Virus record (IMG/VR): IMGVR_UViG_3300045006_000031
Coordinates: 1 to 33,298 of that record
Length of the DNA: 33,298 nt
Reading direction: 5' to 3' (one strand)
From: a virus
In this document: positions 1,184-30,246 of the stretch, piece after piece
How the letters are laid out: each line of letters begins with the position of its first letter
Numbering within the stretch: position 1 is the first letter of the stretch
The notes under the pieces: generated by a model
The model's database searches: none
Told to the model about the DNA's origin: nothing
What the model saw: the letters and a program-made list of their open reading frames with translations, nothing else
Position numbers and translations under genes: made by a program

Positions 1184-1487
1184 GGCAAATATCCTCAACG
1201 CTTCTTGCAACTATATATTCATGCCCAAGCGATTCGACACGGGCCTGGAAGCGTTTCTGTGCATCGCTTTGTTTACCGTCCTCAGCTTTGACCTCGACGA
1301 ACACAACCCGGCCAAGCAATACCACTACCAAGTCAGACGCGCCAGCCCGCAGTCCCATGCTGACCAACTGCATCTGCTGTACGGCTGACCGTCCATGTGC
1401 TTCGTTATTTATGGCAAAAAAATAATGCCCGCGATCTTGGAGCCACTTACATAGCTCGATCTGTAGCTTCGCTTCCTCGTGCTTCAT
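1167..1487 (-). CDS. VRR-NUC domain nuclease
   Basis: This 106-residue protein resembles stand-alone VRR-NUC proteins of phages, a PD-(D/E)XK-type nuclease fold. The visible core is E4/E5 in the first helix, the segment GRSAVQQMQLVSMGLRAGASDLVVV, the E-V-K motif in VFVEVKAEDGKQSDAQ, and a C-terminal strand-helix (YIVARSVEDICRAI). VRR-NUC proteins are linked to branched-DNA cleavage and often sit beside a phage helicase, as here. The start overlaps the helicase 3' end by 41 nt, which indicates one operon. Activity on Holliday junctions is inferred from the family. Confidence 0.85.
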   Translation of the reverse strand: MKHEEAKLQIELCKWLQDRGHYFFAINNEAHGRSAVQQMQLVSMGLRAGASDLVVVLLGRVVFVEVKAEDGKQSDAQKRFQARVESLGHEYIVARSVEDICRAINT

Positions 1488-3999
1488 CGTCTGGCCTCCA
1501 GTGCATAAAATCAGGTAACGTATCCTTGTAGAACTCTTTGCGCACTACCTTAGTGTATTTCCCATCCGGTATTGTCCAAATGGTATGCGGCCCCTCTATC
1601 TTCCTACCATTGGCAATCGACACCCATGCGTGGGCATCTTCACATGCCAGGACACCAAACGCCTTGCATTCTTTCAGATACCCGGATCGAAACTTGCTTT
1701 TCGGGAACACCCAATCATAGTAGTACTCACCAAGCCCGCATTCATACTCGATCTTCACGCACGCATCTTTCCCTGGCTTGCTGTGCACCGAAAACCACGT
1801 TTTGTTGACCTTGCGTTCGACTGGCACGATATCAGTCGATAACACTGGCGCATCAGATGCGACGTGTTCGATGTTCTTTTCTGGTACCGGAAACTCATAA
1901 CCGCACGCTGGGCATTGCATGGTCGCAGCCGGCAGGATATAGTCGCAAACAGGGCAGCATTTGCTCGGCGGTATACCGTCGCCTTTGCCTGGCTTGCGGT
2001 CTGGATCTATCTTGTCGATCGGCCCGAACCGCATGCAATTGCCAGCGTAGTCAAGGACGACGCAGTTGTGGACTAATAATCCCTCAACAGTGAAACAATT
2101 TCTTGGTCCGGAATTGAGAATGTCCCATACACGCCTTTTGGTTTGCACGATTTCTTGTTGAATCTTTCTATGATATCCTGGAAAGACATCCCTTTTGAAA
2201 ACATTGCAACCAAGGTTGAGTCGGCATACCGTATCTCTGGGTGTTCCATTCTGAATTTGTGCATCATTGGAGTATTCTGTTTTCTTCTTGTGTTGTTCAT
2301 ATTTGATTTTCTTTTCAAATATCTGATGTTCCCTATTTCGTAGCCTTTTGAATTGTCTATCCTGTCTATTTCCATATCCGGATGAATACCTATGTTTTCT
2401 TGGATATATATAGCCATCTCCAATGGAGTAGAGAATTTGAAAAGTATCCCTCTCCCGCCGTAGTTTTTGTATTCTCTGGTTTTTGGATTTGTGCATCTTT
2501 CTTTTGCTGATGAACATCTGCTGTAAAGCCATTTTGGAACACTTCTTGGGTTCCCGCATTTCCTGCACCCAGCTATATTTCTTTTCAAATTGGACATCGA
2601 TACCAATTTTTCTTCTTCGCATCTCATGCACTTTACCAACATCAAGGCTCTCTTCTTTTCGTTCCGAAAAACCGTCCCTGATATAACCTTCAGATAATTG
2701 AATTCCATCCCGACCATTTCCGGTAACTCTGATGGGAATTTGTTTTTGGGAACACTCCCCAAAGGTGCGCCAACCTTCTTTGGTGTAGACTTTATGGTCT
2801 GGTGTTGCTGTGAGTCCTGCATATGTTATTACCTCCCTTTCCCCGCGTAATACTATACCATCATGACTTACATAAGTCAACCCATCCCATACCTTCATAT
2901 ATTTTTTTACATTCTGGATTTTTACTAAACCGTAGTCAGTTAAAACCATTTGGTCTTCCGCAATGCAATCTCTTTTCCCTTCTGCTCTACGCATGCCTCG
3001 GCCAAGGATCTGGATATGCAGTCCGGCGCTTTCGGTCGGGCGAAGGATTCCAATCATGTCAATCCTTGGATTATCGTACCCGGTAGTCAGTACTGCGACA
3101 TTGACCACACATCTGGTTTCGCCTGACTTATGCCGCCTGATTATCTCGTCGCGCTCTTCCTTCGGCGTGTCGCCCGTTACCATTTCGGCGCTCACGCCAT
3201 GCACCATCAGACAGTCAGTTATCTGCTTTGCATGATCGACGCCAATGGCAAAGACAATCCAGCATCGCCGGTCTGATGCCCTGGCTATCATATCCGATAC
3301 CGCAATCTCGGTTATGTCGCCAGCCATGGCCGCCTTCTCAAGTTCCCCCGTGACGAACTCGGCCCCGCGATGCGCAACCTTTGAGGTATCAATTGTAACC
3401 TTGCCAGCCTTGGTCGTCAGATTCGACAGCCAGCCGTCAGCTATCAGCCGCAGGATATCGGCATTGTATGCCATGTGATGAAATATCCGGTCATCGCCTT
3501 TGTGTATCCAGCCGGTCGTCAGTCGGAACGGCGTCGCGCTCAAGCCAATGACGCGCATGTTCGGGTTCATCGTCAAAAGCATGTTGAGCGTCTTTTTGTA
3601 TAGCGTGCCTTCTTCTGTGGACACGGAATGTACCTCATCAACGATTACGATGTCGAACGCGTCGCGCTTATGGATATGCTTGGCGATTGACTGGATGCCG
3701 GCAAACACAATCGGCTCATGCAATTCGCGCTTACCAAGGCCAGCGCTATAGATCCCGACAGGAGCCGATGGCCATAGATGCAAAAGTTTCTCGGCGTTTT
3801 GGGCAATCAACTCCCGCGAATGGACCAGCATCAAGATCCTGGCTCCCCACTGGCTATGCAGCCGCTCGACAAGCGCCGCGATGACCAGCGATTTGCCGGA
3901 GCCGGTCGGCAGACAAATAACATAGTTTCCAGGTATTCCGGCTGCCCATCCATCAAAAACAGCCTGGACGGCATCCTGCTGATAGTCGCGCAAAACCAT
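1447..3999 (-). CDS. Superfamily 2 DEAD/DEAH helicase interrupted by an intein
   Basis: The precursor has 850 residues; removing the 301-residue intein leaves about 549, a usual size for a phage SF2 helicase. Visible motifs are the Q-like R-D-Y-Q-Q at the N-terminus, Walker A PTGSGKS (31-37), DEVH (121-124), SATP (154-157) and motif VI QILGRGMRR (330-338). A C-terminal zinc ribbon has CPVC (682-685) and CPAC (696-699). The intein sits 6-7 residues after motif VI, and the extein resumes with CVVLDYAGN, giving a normal helicase sequence once spliced. I chose the ATG at 3999 because GAGAGG lies 7 nt upstream; the TTG at 4005 is less likely. It probably unwinds DNA in phage replication or recombination together with the neighbouring Gp157, DUF669 and VRR-NUC proteins. 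Confidence 0.9.
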   Translation of the reverse strand: MVLRDYQQDAVQAVFDGWAAGIPGNYVICLPTGSGKSLVIAALVERLHSQWGARILMLVHSRELIAQNAEKLLHLWPSAPVGIYSAGLGKRELHEPIVFAGIQSIAKHIHKRDAFDIVIVDEVHSVSTEEGTLYKKTLNMLLTMNPNMRVIGLSATPFRLTTGWIHKGDDRIFHHMAYNADILRLIADGWLSNLTTKAGKVTIDTSKVAHRGAEFVTGELEKAAMAGDITEIAVSDMIARASDRRCWIVFAIGVDHAKQITDCLMVHGVSAEMVTGDTPKEERDEIIRRHKSGETRCVVNVAVLTTGYDNPRIDMIGILRPTESAGLHIQILGRGMRRAEGKRDCIAEDQMVLTDYGLVKIQNVKKYMKVWDGLTYVSHDGIVLRGEREVITYAGLTATPDHKVYTKEGWRTFGECSQKQIPIRVTGNGRDGIQLSEGYIRDGFSERKEESLDVGKVHEMRRRKIGIDVQFEKKYSWVQEMREPKKCSKMALQQMFISKRKMHKSKNQRIQKLRRERDTFQILYSIGDGYIYPRKHRYSSGYGNRQDRQFKRLRNREHQIFEKKIKYEQHKKKTEYSNDAQIQNGTPRDTVCRLNLGCNVFKRDVFPGYHRKIQQEIVQTKRRVWDILNSGPRNCFTVEGLLVHNCVVLDYAGNCMRFGPIDKIDPDRKPGKGDGIPPSKCCPVCDYILPAATMQCPACGYEFPVPEKNIEHVASDAPVLSTDIVPVERKVNKTWFSVHSKPGKDACVKIEYECGLGEYYYDWVFPKSKFRSGYLKECKAFGVLACEDAHAWVSIANGRKIEGPHTIWTIPDGKYTKVVRKEFYKDTLPDFMHWRPDDEARGSEATDRAM
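2073..2822 (-). CDS. HNH homing endonuclease nested in the intein in an alternative frame
   Basis: This 249-residue protein is read from the same strand as the helicase but one base out of frame, and lies wholly inside the intein DNA. It has an N-terminal basic region and a zinc-knuckle-like set of cysteines (CMRC at 65-68, CRKC at 86-89). Next come a helical segment WLYSRCSSAKERC and YKNYGGRGI (118-126). The HNH core is IDRIDNSKGYEIGNIRYLKR (152-171), followed by NMNNTRRK. This is the layout of free-standing phage HNH endonucleases. AGGGAGGT (2831-2838) is an excellent ribosome site 8 nt before the ATG, and TAG ends the gene 5 nt before the last intein codon. It would cut intein-less helicase genes and so promote intein homing; that role is inferred. 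Confidence 0.88.
   Translation of the reverse strand: MQDSQQHQTIKSTPKKVGAPLGSVPKNKFPSELPEMVGMEFNYLKVISGTVFRNEKKRALMLVKCMRCEEEKLVSMSNLKRNIAGCRKCGNPRSVPKWLYSRCSSAKERCTNPKTREYKNYGGRGILFKFSTPLEMAIYIQENIGIHPDMEIDRIDNSKGYEIGNIRYLKRKSNMNNTRRKQNTPMMHKFRMEHPEIRYADSTLVAMFSKGMSFQDIIERFNKKSCKPKGVYGTFSIPDQEIVSLLRDY
2831..2838 (-). promoter_or_regulatory. Shine-Dalgarno site of the nested HNH gene
   Basis: The minus strand reads AGGGAGGT, then 8 nt, then the ATG of the HNH gene. In the intein frame the same bases code for the residues just before block B (R-E-V-I-T-Y). A near-perfect ribosome site at the right distance is independent support that the nested gene is translated on its own, not only as part of the helicase. 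Confidence 0.8.
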
Positions 4000-4018
4000 A
4001 CACAAACCTCTCTACTCA

Positions 4019-4090
4019 AGCCCGATGCAGGAATTGCACCCACGACATCCGCGATACAAAGGCGGCGTTCTGCTGCTGAACTAATCGGGC
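4019..4090 (-). tRNA. tRNA-Thr(TGT)-like gene, partly degenerate
   Basis: The cloverleaf is clear. A perfect 7-bp acceptor stem (GCCCGAT/ATCGGGC) is followed by a 4-bp D stem (GTTC/GAAC), then an anticodon arm with stem CCGCC/CGCGG and loop TTTGTAT. The loop gives anticodon TGT (threonine) with T33 and A37. The T stem GTGGG/CCTGC contains two G-T pairs. Departures from consensus are a C-C mismatch at the base of the anticodon loop, a 7-nt D loop without the GG pair, and a T loop TGCAATT in which the usual T55 is G. No CCA is encoded. It could be a functional divergent phage tRNA or a decaying one. Confidence 0.6.
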
Positions 4091-4092
4091 AA

Positions 4093-4168
4093 TGGAGCCA
4101 GTCGGGGATGATCCGACTACGCAATGCGCAACGGCCGGAATTTATACTGCATTCTTTCCGTTGGCCCC
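4093..4168 (-). ncRNA. tRNA-sized folded element, possible tRNA remnant
   Basis: The 76-nt element directly precedes the tRNA-Thr-like gene. Its ends pair as a 7-bp acceptor (GGGGCCA/TGGCTCC, one G-T), and a T-arm-like hairpin GTCGG/CCGAC with a 7-nt loop lies at the expected place. A possible D stem is GGAA/TTCC with an unusually long loop. No acceptable anticodon arm forms, so I do not call a tRNA; a decayed tRNA or chance folding are both possible. Confidence 0.25.
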
Positions 4169-4360
4169 GTTTGAAAGCGTCCGGGCGGAATTGTGACCCG
4201 GTGGCGGCTCGGGGCCGGCTGGCCCCGTTGGTTCCCACATGCCGCTCACGCACATCATCAAGCCCATTGGGCCTGGCAGGGCGCGACCCTGCTGCCGCAT
4301 TACTCCTTCGGCCTCGCTTCCAGGCTGTTTATTTACGTCACTACAGCCATTAGGTGACGG

Positions 4361-4885
4361 CTAAAAAATCTCGTGTTGCTCAACCTGCTGCGCCGGCTGC
4401 GCTGGCTGCACAGACTCCCACGGCTTGCTCGTCGCCTGAGCAGTCACCGGTTGCGGCGCGGCAGCGGGCGCGGCAGGTGCTGCTGTCTTGGCAACCGGCT
4501 TCCAGCTCTTGATGACGTTTTGCGCATCGTAACCATCGGATGCCGGCTTGATGCCAACGGTAATCAACACCGGCCTGTTATGGAACTCGACAGTGTCGGT
4601 AGCATTGGGCTTTCCGGTGGCGATCTTGATGCTTGCCATCTCGCGCTTGGCAATCGCTACCGCCTGCTCGTTCCGGTTCCACAGATTCAAGTTCTGCCAC
4701 AGCTTGCGCTTCTTGTACTTGCCGTCGACAATCTCGACTTCAAGCTTGATATACTTGCCGGTGTAATCCTTGGTCTGCTTGACCTCGCTTGCCACAATTA
4801 CGGCAACATACTCGCCAACCGGGATCGGAGAAAAATCATCCTGCGGCTCAACGCCGTTCATGTCTACGTCTGCAAATCCTGCCAT
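4361..4885 (-). CDS. DUF669 family protein, likely single-strand DNA-binding
   Basis: The 174-residue protein has the DUF669 hallmark KLWQNLNLWNRNEQAVAIAKREMASI (about residues 61-86), which aligns with this phage family. The core is followed by an Ala/Pro/Gln-rich linker (about 134-165) and ends in EIF. The combination of a beta-rich core, a flexible linker and an acidic tip resembles single-stranded DNA-binding proteins, and DUF669 genes commonly lie in phage replication or recombination operons. The ATG overlaps the stop of the Gp157-like gene (TAATG) after GAGGG. ssDNA binding is inferred from family context and was not read from residues. Confidence 0.8.
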   Translation of the reverse strand: MAGFADVDMNGVEPQDDFSPIPVGEYVAVIVASEVKQTKDYTGKYIKLEVEIVDGKYKKRKLWQNLNLWNRNEQAVAIAKREMASIKIATGKPNATDTVEFHNRPVLITVGIKPASDGYDAQNVIKSWKPVAKTAAPAAPAAAPQPVTAQATSKPWESVQPAQPAQQVEQHEIF

Positions 4886-5370
4886 TATTTTACCCTCAAA
4901 GATTTGGTCTGCACCAGCTTACAGCCGGCGATTTCGATTCCGTCAAGTAACGCTTTCTTGAGTGCTGCCTTGTCTGCCTCAATCTTGACGCGTTGGTACT
5001 CAGCCGGCAATTTTTCTGCCTCAAGCATCATCTCGACTGACTGCGGATTGTTTTGGATGCGCACACTGAACAACGCACCGTCAACCTTGTCGACACCAAT
5101 CGACTCCATCTCATACTGCATATACTCGCGCAGCCGCTCGATCTTGGCCTCAATGGCCTTCCTGCGAGTATCCAGCCTGGCGCGTTCATCGGTGATGGCG
5201 TCTGACTGTGCTTTAGCATTGGCAAGCACCATGCAGCAGTTCTCGATCTTCTCGGTCAGACTTACTTGCAGTCCAGCATATAGATCAGCAAATGCCTGGA
5301 TGTCGTCGTCAGTATCCAACTCGATTGAATCGAGCGCCCGGAACTGGTCTTTGATTTCGTAGAGCTTCAT
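4885..5370 (-). CDS. Gp157-like siphovirus protein
   Basis: The 161-residue protein resembles the Gp157 family of siphovirus early proteins. It has an acidic helical N-terminus, a long coiled-coil-like helix (about 58-90, with LDTRRKAIEAKIERLREYMQ), then a beta-strand region SVRIQNNPQSVEM and LPAEYQRVKIEADKAALKKAL near the C-terminus. Known relatives have been linked to phage resistance or replication operons, but the mechanism is not settled. The start codon overlaps the stop of the pentapeptide-repeat gene, and the stop overlaps the DUF669 start. Confidence 0.85.
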   Translation of the reverse strand: MKLYEIKDQFRALDSIELDTDDDIQAFADLYAGLQVSLTEKIENCCMVLANAKAQSDAITDERARLDTRRKAIEAKIERLREYMQYEMESIGVDKVDGALFSVRIQNNPQSVEMMLEAEKLPAEYQRVKIEADKAALKKALLDGIEIAGCKLVQTKSLRVK

Positions 5371-6113
5371 TTTTTCAACCTCCCGACCACTGCTTTGAAA
5401 AACGCAATGGCATCGCGGTAATTCTGGCCGTGAACAGAATCACCATGGGTGGACTGCACCTTAGCCTCAAATTCAGCTAAGGTTCCCACGAAGCACCCGC
5501 ACCAAATCTTGTCTTCCTCAACCCAGAAGAGTGTCTGGCGGCCTTCGCGGCCAATACCAGCGACTGACAAGATAGTATTGACCTCACGTCCGCCGATATT
5601 GCGCAAGTTGGCCCCGACCGAGCTGGCCTCGACCAAGCTGGCTCCGACCAAGTTGGCCCCGACCAAGCTGGCCCCGTCCAAGCTGGCCTCGACCAAGCTG
5701 GCCCCGTCCAAGTTGGCCCCGTCCAACCTGGCCCTGACCAACCTGGCCCCGACCAAGCTGGCCCTGACCAAGTTGGCCCCGTCCAACCTGGCCCCGTCCA
5801 AGTTGGCCCTGACCAACCTGGCCCCGACCAAGCTGGCCTCGACCAAGCTGGCTCCGACCAAGCTGGCACCGTCCAAGTTGGCCCCGACCAAGCTGGCCCT
5901 GACCAAGTTGGCCTCGACCAAGCTGGCCCCGACCAAGCTGGCCTCGACCAAGTTGGCCCCGTCCAACCTGGCCCCGTCCAAGTTGGCCCCGTCCAACCTG
6001 GCCCCGACCAAGTTGGCCCTGACCAAGTTGGCCCTGACACCATCCTCATTACCATCCAACCACTTGCGATGCTTGGCGATAATTTCGGCGAGTTGTTCAG
6101 TTGTATAAGTCAT
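5367..6113 (-). CDS. Pentapeptide-repeat protein
   Basis: Residues 26-170 hold 29 uninterrupted five-residue units such as [15 protein letters not shown] and VGARL, which predict a right-handed quadrilateral beta-helix. A short N-terminal segment ([16 protein letters not shown]) precedes the repeats, and about 78 C-terminal residues follow, ending with a region rich in aromatic and basic residues. Similar phage proteins carry the same N-terminal lead and C-terminal domain. Some pentapeptide proteins mimic DNA and bind gyrase, but nothing here proves that. The 15-nt DNA units are almost identical, so copy number likely varies by recombination. The gene is coupled by ATGA overlaps on both sides. 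Confidence 0.85.
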
Positions 6114-10767: not shown

Positions 10768-11493
10768 ATGGGTGTAGTTTACTGCGCAACAAACAAAATC
10801 AACGGGAAAAAATATATAGGCTTTACGTCTATAAGTTTGAAACACCGTAAGGGCCAACATCTCGCGGCAGCACAAACTGAAAATGGGGCATCATTTTTCC
10901 ATTATGCCATAAGAAAGTATGGCGCCCATAATTTTGAATGGGAAGAAGTTTTCACATCTGATGATGTTAGAGAACTAAAGGCTATGGAGAAAAGTTTAAT
11001 TTCTGAAAATAAATCCTTACGTCCAGGCGGTTATAATTTAACGCATGGAGGAGAAGGAAATGTTTTGACAGAAGAAACAAAAAGAAAAATAGGTGCTGCA
11101 AATAAAGGCAGGAAGCCAACACAATACTGCATTGAAAGGGCTTTGGAATACTGGAAAACTCATCAAGTATCAGAAGAAACAAGGAAAAAATTACGCGGGA
11201 GAAAGGTTGTAATCTCACAGGAGATGCGCGATCGAATCAGTAAAAAACTGATGGGACATAAACATTCAGAAGAAACAAAAAGAAAAATAGGCGAAGCAGG
11301 CAAAGGTAAAAATACTGGCAAAAACAACCATAAATCAAGAATGGTAATGTGCGTTGAGACTGGCCAGGTATTTGAAACATTGACAGCTGCCGCAAAACAT
11401 TGCGGCGGAAGTATTGAAAATATATATAGGTGCGCATCTGGTAGAAATAAGACTGCTTTTGGATTCAAGTGGGAATATGTTGAAAAGGAATAA
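10768..11493 (+). CDS. GIY-YIG homing endonuclease with NUMOD motifs
   Basis: The 241-residue protein has the GIY-YIG core: VVYCATNKINGKKYIG (3-18), R27 in HRKGQH, the catalytic glutamate E74 in LKAMEKSLI, and N90 in GGYNLTHGG. Two NUMOD3 helices (TEETKRKIGAANKGRK and SEETKRKIGEAGKGKN) and a C-terminal NUMOD1-type domain (VETGQVFETLTAAAKHCGG) form the DNA-binding part. The gene is much richer in A+T than its neighbours, a sign of transfer. It lies between the terminase genes and overlaps the start of the large terminase by 17 nt, the usual place for a free-standing endonuclease that homes into packaging genes. Confidence 0.92.
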   Translation: MGVVYCATNKINGKKYIGFTSISLKHRKGQHLAAAQTENGASFFHYAIRKYGAHNFEWEEVFTSDDVRELKAMEKSLISENKSLRPGGYNLTHGGEGNVLTEETKRKIGAANKGRKPTQYCIERALEYWKTHQVSEETRKKLRGRKVVISQEMRDRISKKLMGHKHSEETKRKIGEAGKGKNTGKNNHKSRMVMCVETGQVFETLTAAAKHCGGSIENIYRCASGRNKTAFGFKWEYVEKE

Positions 11494-29515: not shown

Positions 29516-29758
29516 ATGCCTGAAATGAAAGCAAAAACCGCTTCGCTGGTCAGCAAGGTTATTGCCTTGGCTTGGATCATCGTTGGTGAAACTCTTATTG
29601 GGCTTGAGATTTTCAAGGGCCTGGACTGGGTCTCCGTCATCATCATCGGCTGTGTGATGGCCGTGGTGTTCATCAGCACTGACATTAGCCTCATCCTCAA
29701 AAATGTATCAGCGGGGAAAATCGACCTGACCGGTGCCGTACCAAAGGACGACAAATGA
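29516..29758 (+). CDS. Putative holin with two membrane helices
   Basis: The ATG at 29516 follows GGAG at 6 nt. The 80-residue product has two hydrophobic helices (SKVIALAWIIVGETLIGLEI and VSVIIIGCVMAVVFISTDIS) and short charged ends, which is typical of a small class II holin. Position directly after the endolysin supports this. The stop overlaps the ATG of the next gene. Confidence 0.7.
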   Translation: MPEMKAKTASLVSKVIALAWIIVGETLIGLEIFKGLDWVSVIIIGCVMAVVFISTDISLILKNVSAGKIDLTGAVPKDDK

Positions 29759-30246
29759 CATGGACGCACTTGAAAAATTCAACGCATGGGTTCATGGGCT
29801 TCCGGCTTGGTGTCGCTGGTTTTTTGCTTTTCTTCTTACTCTTGCCATTATCGGCGCAAGTATCTTTTTTACCTTCTTTCGGCAACGAACCGAGCCAATT
29901 GAGTCAACCGGAAAAACCGGAGACGGAACCAGGAGCGAGCTTGATAGACAGACTGGTGGCGCAATTGGAAGCATGGGTGAACTGGTACGAGATGACGTGG
30001 ACACCCTGGAGCCAGGCCGACAGGAAATGGCACGAAGCGGTGAAAGTCTCGTTGACGCAAGCCGCGATCTTATTGCAGAAGCAAAGCGAGCGAGCGGAAA
30101 AAGCGGAAAATGAAGTCGCCGCGCTCCGGCTTGAAATCGAGCGGCTGAAACGCGACCGGCTTGTCATCGGCGCAATTTCTGCCGGTGCCGGATCCACCCT
30201 CGGCGCTATACTGTCGGCAATCATCGAACAGGCGATAAGGCACTGA
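29755..30246 (+). CDS. Exported protein with coiled coil and C-terminal membrane helix, spanin-like
   Basis: The 163-residue protein starts at an ATGA overlap with the holin gene. It has an N-terminal hydrophobic signal (LGVAGFLLFFLLLPLSA, about 19-35), a Pro/Glu-rich linker and an amphipathic region. A coiled coil (SERAEKAENEVAALRLEIERLKRDR) leads to a C-terminal hydrophobic helix (VIGAISAGAGSTLGAILSAII). There is no lipobox cysteine. The layout suggests a protein that spans the periplasm and disrupts the outer membrane. Most of the gene is shared with a second open gene in another frame. Confidence 0.6.
   Translation: MTWTHLKNSTHGFMGFRLGVAGFLLFFLLLPLSAQVSFLPSFGNEPSQLSQPEKPETEPGASLIDRLVAQLEAWVNWYEMTWTPWSQADRKWHEAVKVSLTQAAILLQKQSERAEKAENEVAALRLEIERLKRDRLVIGAISAGAGSTLGAILSAIIEQAIRH
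29760..30113 (+). CDS. Overlapping membrane protein gene, i-spanin-like
   Basis: The ATG at 29760 lies 5 nt after the start of the previous gene, in another frame, and all of this gene lies inside it. The 117-residue product has a clean N-terminal membrane helix (WFFAFLLTLAIIGASIFFTF, about 20-39), then a polar, charged region with helical stretches to a Lys-rich end. An N-terminal anchor followed by a hydrophilic periplasmic part matches inner-membrane spanin subunits (Rz-like). Overlapping spanin genes are well known, but here the two start almost together. Which frame is expressed, or both, cannot be decided from sequence alone. Confidence 0.5.
   Translation: MDALEKFNAWVHGLPAWCRWFFAFLLTLAIIGASIFFTFFRQRTEPIESTGKTGDGTRSELDRQTGGAIGSMGELVRDDVDTLEPGRQEMARSGESLVDASRDLIAEAKRASGKSGK

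What the first reader, a model, noticed from the sequence alone, without database searches (positions are those of the whole stretch)
2065..2967. Dual-coded intein: a full HNH endonuclease gene nested in another frame inside the intein DNA
Seen: an intein with complete splicing blocks has no in-frame endonuclease. The same strand, one base out of frame, encodes a 249-residue HNH protein (2073-2822) covering over 80% of the intein. The nested gene has its own ribosome site (AGGGAGGT, 8 nt before ATG) and its own stop 5 nt before the last intein codon. DNA coding for Hint block B also encodes the HNH N-terminus, and DNA for blocks F/G also encodes its C-terminus. About 200 central intein-frame codons stay open though they show no domain; under a uniform-codon null this has a chance of order 1e-4, suggesting selection to keep splicing possible. 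In typical inteins the endonuclease is fused in frame. Here the nuclease could be made without splicing and regulated separately, which would uncouple homing from host-protein expression. I am not certain whether this arrangement has been described.
Basis: partly seen in the sequence, partly recalled or inferred. Interest (0 to 1): 0.95.

Follow-up and report, generated by a model that had tools for sequence, protein, structure and literature searches.

The report
Intein hiding an out-of-frame nuclease gene
A stretch of phage DNA encodes two proteins at once: in one reading frame it is an intein that should cut itself out of a helicase, and one base over it is a separate DNA-cutting enzyme that probably spreads the element; the same double-coded design is conserved across many unrelated phages and seems to have gone unnoticed in their annotation.

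Summary
Observation confirmed and greatly extended. In the window (minus strand) an SF2 helicase gene carries a 301-codon class 1-type intein (2967-2065) with no in-frame nuclease. The +1 frame of the same DNA encodes a 249-aa HNH-family protein (2822-2073) with its own Shine-Dalgarno, ATG and stop. It is neither chance nor a frameshift artefact. In scans seeded only with the nuclease, 108 of 114 loci with a Hint domain have the host frame open and the HNH out of frame (+1 or +2); of 91 relatives without a Hint domain all but one have stops in both other frames. Codon-position variability switches phase where the nuclease starts and stops, and the nuclease is under purifying selection. The intein frame is conserved beyond what the nuclease imposes only in the two Hint pieces; the ~185 codons between are merely kept open and predicted disordered. 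Hosts are phage PolA and helicase genes, including Salmonella Jerseyvirus and APSE-1. Most likely a mini-intein overprinted by a separately translated homing endonuclease; splicing and cleavage remain untested. Two relatives are split inteins with the HNH gene between the halves. Closest published case: the ShiLan out-of-frame HNH insertion, which lacks a Hint domain.

The parts
1447..4005 (-). SF2 helicase precursor ORF (852 aa): N-extein 4005-2968, intein 2967-2065, C-extein 2064-1450, stop 1449-1447
   Evidence: Pfam ResIII 3e-24, DEAD 3e-14, Helicase_C 7e-13; PHROG_16 3e-85
2065..2967 (-). Intein, 301 codons, host frame, open throughout
   Evidence: C1, TxxH, D282, H300-N301, Cys+1 present; Foldseek top PDB matches are all inteins
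2719..2967 (-). Hint N-terminal piece (residues 1-83; block B TATPDH at 2794-2811)
   Evidence: pLDDT 95-97; T55 and H58 60/60
2146..2700 (-). Intein-frame passenger loop (residues 90-274), open but unconstrained and predicted disordered; overlaps the HNH core
   Evidence: pLDDT 36-57; identity explained by HNH constraint plus no stops
2065..2145 (-). Hint C-terminal piece (residues 275-301, blocks F/G)
   Evidence: pLDDT 86-96; D282 and N301 60/60
2073..2822 (-). Nested HNH-family endonuclease gene, 249 aa, +1 relative to the intein, stop TAG 2075-2073
   Evidence: PHROG_374 1.7e-23, PHROG_3377 1.4e-19; conserved in other phages in the same place; AlphaFold pLDDT 84, core 93-98
2831..2838 (-). 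Shine-Dalgarno AGGGAGGT, 8 nt before the HNH ATG (2822-2820), inside intein codons for REV
   Evidence: Sequence; SD of at least 5 nt in 94% of 62 relatives with the canonical ATG, 56% expected
2556..2630 (-). HNH zinc-binding Cys residues C65, C68, C86, C89
   Evidence: Invariant 58/58
2292..2366 (-). HNH presumed active-site stretch D153-R154...N165...N177
   Evidence: D153, R154, N165 58/58, N177 54/58
2062..2064 (-). Cys+1, first C-extein residue; present also in intein-less helicases
   Evidence: Empty-site alignment

Best explanation
This is a small (Hint-only) intein whose loop between the two Hint pieces is overprinted by a complete HNH-family homing endonuclease gene in another reading frame. 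Translation in the host frame makes a helicase precursor; the Hint domain, carrying a disordered loop of about 185 residues, should excise itself and join the exteins. Independently, ribosomes that start at the internal SD/ATG translate the same mRNA in the +1 frame and make a stand-alone nuclease, which should cut intein-less helicase alleles at the motif VI site so that the whole element is copied in. Shown: both frames, their conservation, stop avoidance, selection on the HNH frame, dual constraint at both ends, the empty site. Inferred: splicing, internal initiation, nuclease activity and homing.
For: Both frames are conserved in other host genes: Streptococcus and Gardnerella phage PolA inteins match the intein over its whole length and the HNH in the other frame at the same place. 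Census: 81 distinct full-length class I members, all +1, none in frame 0. HNH-seeded scans: 43 of 46 class I loci open through (2 cut by contig ends, 1 single-base indel); 65 of 68 Hint-bearing loci of classes II and III open and out of frame (39 at +1, 26 at +2); 91 HNH relatives without a Hint domain average 15.4 and 8.7 stops in the two other frames, one open. Synonymous shuffles: 70 representatives, 0 stops observed, 673 expected. Phase switch of the variable codon position at the HNH start and stop. Codons 89-272: HNH-silent/intein-changing differences 178 against 54 expected, the opposite kind 27 against 60; the reverse in codons 1-47. Intein-frame identity exceeds HNH-imposed identity strongly only at codons 49-90 (0.65 vs 0.31) and 273-303 (0.60 vs 0.36). 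The intein frame folds only at the Hint ends, the HNH frame as a unit. Empty helicase sites.
Against: No expression, splicing or cleavage data. The expected general-base His is Arg throughout and no solved structure matches well. About a quarter of full-length members lack the ATG at the canonical place and must start elsewhere; many have an ATG at intein codon 45 with a strong SD, some have no obvious good start. Standard intein models barely recognise this Hint domain. The zero-stop count of the 70 representatives is partly conditioned on an open host ORF; the HNH-seeded sets are not.
Confidence: 0.88

Rival explanations
1. Two compensating sequencing or assembly frameshifts make an ordinary in-frame intein/HNH fusion look out of frame.
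For: Indels do occur in two relatives (L135, L156).
Against: The same offset recurs in isolates and prophages of many groups, with two different offsets in different clades; no intact full-length relative has an in-frame HNH. The intein frame stays open through the HNH region, which frameshift errors would not give.
Confidence: 0.01
2. The HNH is made by programmed ribosomal frameshifting out of the host frame, as an extein/N-intein/HNH fusion, not by internal initiation.
For: Some relatives lack the canonical ATG. A very weak Rfam frameshift-element match lies in the overlap (17.8 bits, cut-off 40).
Against: SD and ATG are kept above what the intein protein and codon usage predict; relatives without the canonical ATG often have an SD/ATG at intein codon 45; the variable codon position switches at the HNH start.
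Confidence: 0.07
3. The HNH frame is a decayed or unused relic in the window, and only the intein functions now.
For: HNH-truncated (L004) and HNH-deleted (L119, L007) relatives exist; the active-site variant is unproven.
Against: The window HNH is full length with all invariant residues, SD and stop; HNH-changing differences are depleted in relatives.
Confidence: 0.12
4. RNA-level splicing: the insert is a group I intron with an HNH gene.
For: HNH genes are common in phage group I introns (PMC3428280).
Against: No intron family in Rfam; complete Hint motifs in the host frame, which stays open.
Confidence: 0.01

Closest known systems
ShiLan domain (mycobacteriophage methylase insertion with a hidden out-of-frame HNH; Arsenault, Gosselin and Gogarten 2025, PMC11855218)
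   Same: Insertion that leaves the host frame open at a conserved site of a phage gene, with an HNH endonuclease in another frame and its stop near the insertion end
   Different: ShiLan has no detectable splicing domain and no SD and is thought to remain in the host protein; here a complete Hint intein is present, usually with an SD, in PolA and helicase genes of many phage groups
Canonical large inteins with an in-frame LAGLIDADG or HNH domain
   Same: Hint splicing domain plus homing nuclease at the usual place between blocks B and F
   Different: The nuclease is not part of the intein protein but a separate gene in another frame
Split inteins with a free endonuclease gene between the halves ('fractured genes', Dassa et al. 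2009; from memory)
   Same: Separate nuclease gene lying between Int-N and Int-C coding parts
   Different: Here Int-N and Int-C are one continuous ORF that runs through the nuclease gene; relatives L269 and L273 do have the split form
Phage group I introns in DNA polymerase genes with HNH ORFs (I-HmuI, I-PfoP3I; PMC3428280)
   Same: HNH gene with its own RBS inside an insertion in phage PolA
   Different: RNA splicing; no requirement for an open host frame

Membership tests
Intein (class 1-type Hint) | C1 nucleophile, block B TxxH, block F Asp, C-terminal HN and Cys+1 | tested here: met
   All present in the window; C1, T55, H58, D282, N301 60/60, H300 46/60 in relatives
Intein (class 1-type Hint) | Hint fold | tested here: met
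   High-confidence model of residues 1-83 and 275-301; Foldseek top hits all inteins, probability 1.0, E about 1e-3
Intein (class 1-type Hint) | In-frame insertion at a conserved site of a host protein that also exists without it | tested here: met
   Helicases L151 and L152 continuous at the site
Intein (class 1-type Hint) | Autocatalytic excision and extein ligation | not testable with these tools
   Needs expression
HNH homing endonuclease | Sequence similarity to HNH endonuclease families | tested here: met
   PHROG_374, 3377, 2081; BFVD HNH endonucleases E 1e-9 to 1e-11; Pfam HNH_3 weakly in 7 of 58 relatives
HNH homing endonuclease | H-N-H active site in a beta-beta-alpha metal fold | tested here: inconclusive
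   D-R...N...N pattern, with Arg at the presumed His position 58/58; only a weak PDB match, PacI Z 3.4
HNH homing endonuclease | Cuts the intein-less allele | not testable with these tools
   Needs a cleavage assay
Canonical intein with in-frame homing endonuclease | Nuclease domain in the intein reading frame | tested here: not met
   HNH is at +1; no in-frame nuclease in any full-length relative
ShiLan-type insertion | No splicing domain | tested here: not met
   Complete Hint domain
Split intein | Int-N and Int-C on separate ORFs | tested here: not met
   One continuous ORF in the window; the split form is seen in relatives L269 and L273
Group I intron | Conserved intron RNA core | tested here: not met
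   No intron family in Rfam at E up to 1 in 1400-4100

The most novel reading that the evidence does not exclude
Overprinting of inteins by an out-of-frame HNH gene arose at least twice (offsets +1 and +2) and is a common way for HNH nucleases to live in phage inteins: the nuclease is expressed apart from splicing, the intein keeps only an open disordered loop, and when the host frame breaks the element becomes a split intein with the nuclease gene between its halves, so dual coding is one route to split inteins.
Probability: 0.45. Interest if true: 0.92.

Novelty: new variant of a known kind. Interest (0 to 1): 0.82.

Why it matters
Inteins are described with the homing nuclease as an in-frame domain, so large phage inteins without one look like relics. 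Here many of them hide a complete nuclease in another frame: a same-strand overlap of about 250 codons held in both frames over great divergence. It separates nuclease expression from splicing, explains long disordered intein loops, links contiguous inteins to split inteins with free nuclease genes, and offers many cultured phages, including E. coli and Caulobacter ones, in which both products can be tested. Public annotation mostly reports the polymerase and misses the nuclease.

Tried and rejected
The search for related loci with the window HNH alone found nothing; alignments were needed. The 30-34% intein-frame identity across the middle first looked like a conserved domain; resampling shows it is a by-product of HNH conservation. 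Pfam and NCBIfam scans of either alignment were uninformative. PDB profile and Foldseek searches with the HNH gave no usable match; the VIA second look gave PacI only weakly, and the absence of other HNH structures there says nothing. Sequencing frameshift, intron and chance-ORF readings were tested and rejected. L182, the only Hint-less relative with an open alternate frame, looks GC-rich and was treated as chance. Literature: ten searches found only the ShiLan-type out-of-frame HNH without Hint; the preprint it cites (bioRxiv 2025.01.02.630785, Actinobacteriophage inteins, non-canonical architecture) is not held, so priority there is unresolved.

Full report
WHAT IS THERE. On the minus strand a helicase gene of superfamily 2 (4005-1447; ResIII/DEAD/Helicase_C, PHROG_16) is interrupted after motif VI by 903 nt (2967-2065) that translate in frame as an intein: Cys1, block B TATPDH, block F D282, and a VHN^C end. 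No nuclease is found in that frame. One base out of frame, 2822-2073 encodes a 249-aa protein matching phage HNH families (PHROG_374 E 1.7e-23, PHROG_3377 1.4e-19). Its ATG lies in the block B region, 8 nt after AGGGAGGT, and its TAG stop lies 5 nt before the last intein codon.

IS IT CHANCE? Permuting synonymous codons of the HNH gene leaves on average 11.8 stops in the intein frame; in 60,000 permutations the minimum was 2. Seven free-standing HNH relatives from phages have 4-44 stops in the corresponding (shift-2) frame.

IS IT CONSERVED? Yes. tblastn with each frame separately hit the same places in DNA polymerase I inteins of Streptococcus phages (Javan101/104/107/113/255, PhiSdyV1524) and Gardnerella phage vB_Gva_AB1, at 30-34% (intein) and 36-37% (HNH) identity. 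APSE-1, Shewanella SFCi1, Caulobacter GB2A, Pseudomonas MR14, Vibrio 97.13 and EBPR siphovirus 2 have the same design with more distant nucleases; in APSE-1 an annotated gene, P46, lies inside P45 where the nested HNH lies. Salmonella Jerseyvirus, Kagunavirus and Dhillonvirus PolA inteins are also of this kind; in phage Ent2 the intein is annotated only as encoding splicing domains. 157 phage records hold that nuclease at 80% identity or more. Scans of IMG/VR and GTDB gave 286 loci, some of them the same contig.

CENSUS. Among the first set there are 101 distinct inteins, mini-inteins and outgroups included, in 75 clusters at 60% identity; all 81 full-length members with a class I HNH (the window's clade) have it at +1. 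Host genes are PolA (mostly at the O-helix site), other polymerase-like genes, and the SF2 helicase (window, L041, L042, L043), whose nucleases form one clade. The scans seeded with the HNH protein do not presuppose an open host frame: 43 of 46 class I loci are open, 2 are cut by contig ends and L135 has a single-base indel. In the class II and III scans, 68 loci carry a Hint N-block; 65 have the host frame open and the HNH out of frame (39 at +1, 26 at +2). Of 91 relatives without a Hint domain, 90 have stops in both other frames. Two different offsets mean that the overlap was probably made at least twice; each class is one clade and class III lies near free-standing enzymes, but the tree does not prove the number of origins.

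SELECTION. In 47 members of exactly 309 codons the most variable codon position is intein position 3 before the HNH start (identity 0.73/0.85/0.42 at positions 1/2/3, codons 1-48), intein position 1, i.e. HNH position 3, within it (0.47/0.72/0.77, codons 60-270), and position 3 again after the HNH stop (0.86/0.90/0.51, codons 301-309). In ten disjoint pairs of relatives, codons 89-272 show 178 changes that are silent in HNH and change the intein (54 expected), and 27 of the opposite kind (60 expected); codons 1-47 show the reverse. Resampling HNH codons synonymously with stops forbidden nearly reproduces the intein-frame identity of the middle (0.37/0.31/0.27 observed, 0.32/0.29/0.25 expected), but not of codons 49-90 (0.65 vs 0.31) or 273-303 (0.60 vs 0.36). 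So both proteins are constrained at the two ends, and between them the intein frame is essentially only kept open. Seventy representatives hold 0 stops where 673 are expected; that count is partly conditioned on an open ORF, the HNH-seeded counts are not.

STRUCTURE. AlphaFold with 60 aligned inteins gives pLDDT 95-97 for residues 1-80, 86-96 for the last 27 residues and 36-57 between; the top PDB matches are inteins. The HNH frame gives pLDDT 84 overall and 93-98 in the core. C65, C68, C86, C89, D153, R154 and N165 are invariant in 58 relatives, N177 nearly so. Arg stands where the general-base His is expected, and no solved structure matches well, so catalysis is inferred from family membership and selection only.

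EXPRESSION. At the canonical site 62 of 86 full-length members (all classes) keep the ATG, and 94% of these have an SD match of 5 nt or more against 56% expected from the intein protein and host-gene codon usage. Several others have an ATG at intein codon 45 with a 6-nt SD match. Internal initiation is therefore favoured over frameshifting, but not shown.

LIFE CYCLE. Helicases without the element are continuous at the site. Mini-intein L119 is 98% identical to L095 in the shared part but lacks exactly 555 bp in frame, and PhiSdyV1524 has lost the HNH C-terminus: losses as expected of homing elements. In L269 and L273 the host frame stops 84-91 codons into the intein, the HNH gene follows, and the C-half restarts at an ATG overlapping the HNH stop (ATGA): split inteins with a nuclease gene between the halves.

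KNOWN OR NEW. The nearest published case, the ShiLan domain (PMC11855218), has an out-of-frame HNH but no splicing domain. Ten literature searches found no Hint intein with an out-of-frame nuclease, but the library lacks most subscription journals and the relevant preprint. It is filed as a new variant of a known kind.

Noticed in passing
L269 about 3735-4716 and L273 about 3742-4704: Split inteins in PolA: Int-N of 84-91 aa ends in a stop, an HNH gene of the same family follows, and Int-C (MKVYDI...VSN^C) restarts at an ATG overlapping the HNH stop (ATGA); candidate natural split inteins for trans-splicing.
   Followed up: partly
L141 (Salmonella phage Ent2) 2522-3418 and about 157 phage records: Jerseyvirus, Kagunavirus and Dhillonvirus PolA inteins hide an HNH gene at +2 that their annotation does not mention; for Salmonella phage LPSE1 a 247-aa uncharacterised protein matches the window HNH model.
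   Followed up: partly
L010 (APSE-1) 3431-3853: Annotated gene P46 lies inside the PolA gene P45, over part of the nested HNH frame.
   Followed up: partly
L004 (Streptococcus phage PhiSdyV1524): HNH truncated after 195 aa by TGA while the intein frame stays open.
   Followed up: yes
L156 (Salmonella phage record close to L141): Indels inside the intein put HNH and Hint pieces in shifted frames; sequencing error or decay.
   Followed up: no
window 4019-4090 (-): A tRNA gene (Rfam, 49.7 bits) lies immediately upstream of the helicase gene.
   Followed up: no
window 10768-11493 (+): By eye a GIY-YIG-type homing endonuclease ORF just before a terminase-like gene, a second possible homing element in this phage.
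   Followed up: no
window 5367-6113 (-) and 1-559: Long pentapeptide-like repeats; several frames stay open because of the repeat.
   Followed up: no
window 29733-30246 (+): Two ORFs overlap in different frames (29733-30113 and 29755-30246), both with a hydrophobic N-terminal stretch; possibly a nested membrane-protein pair.
   Followed up: no
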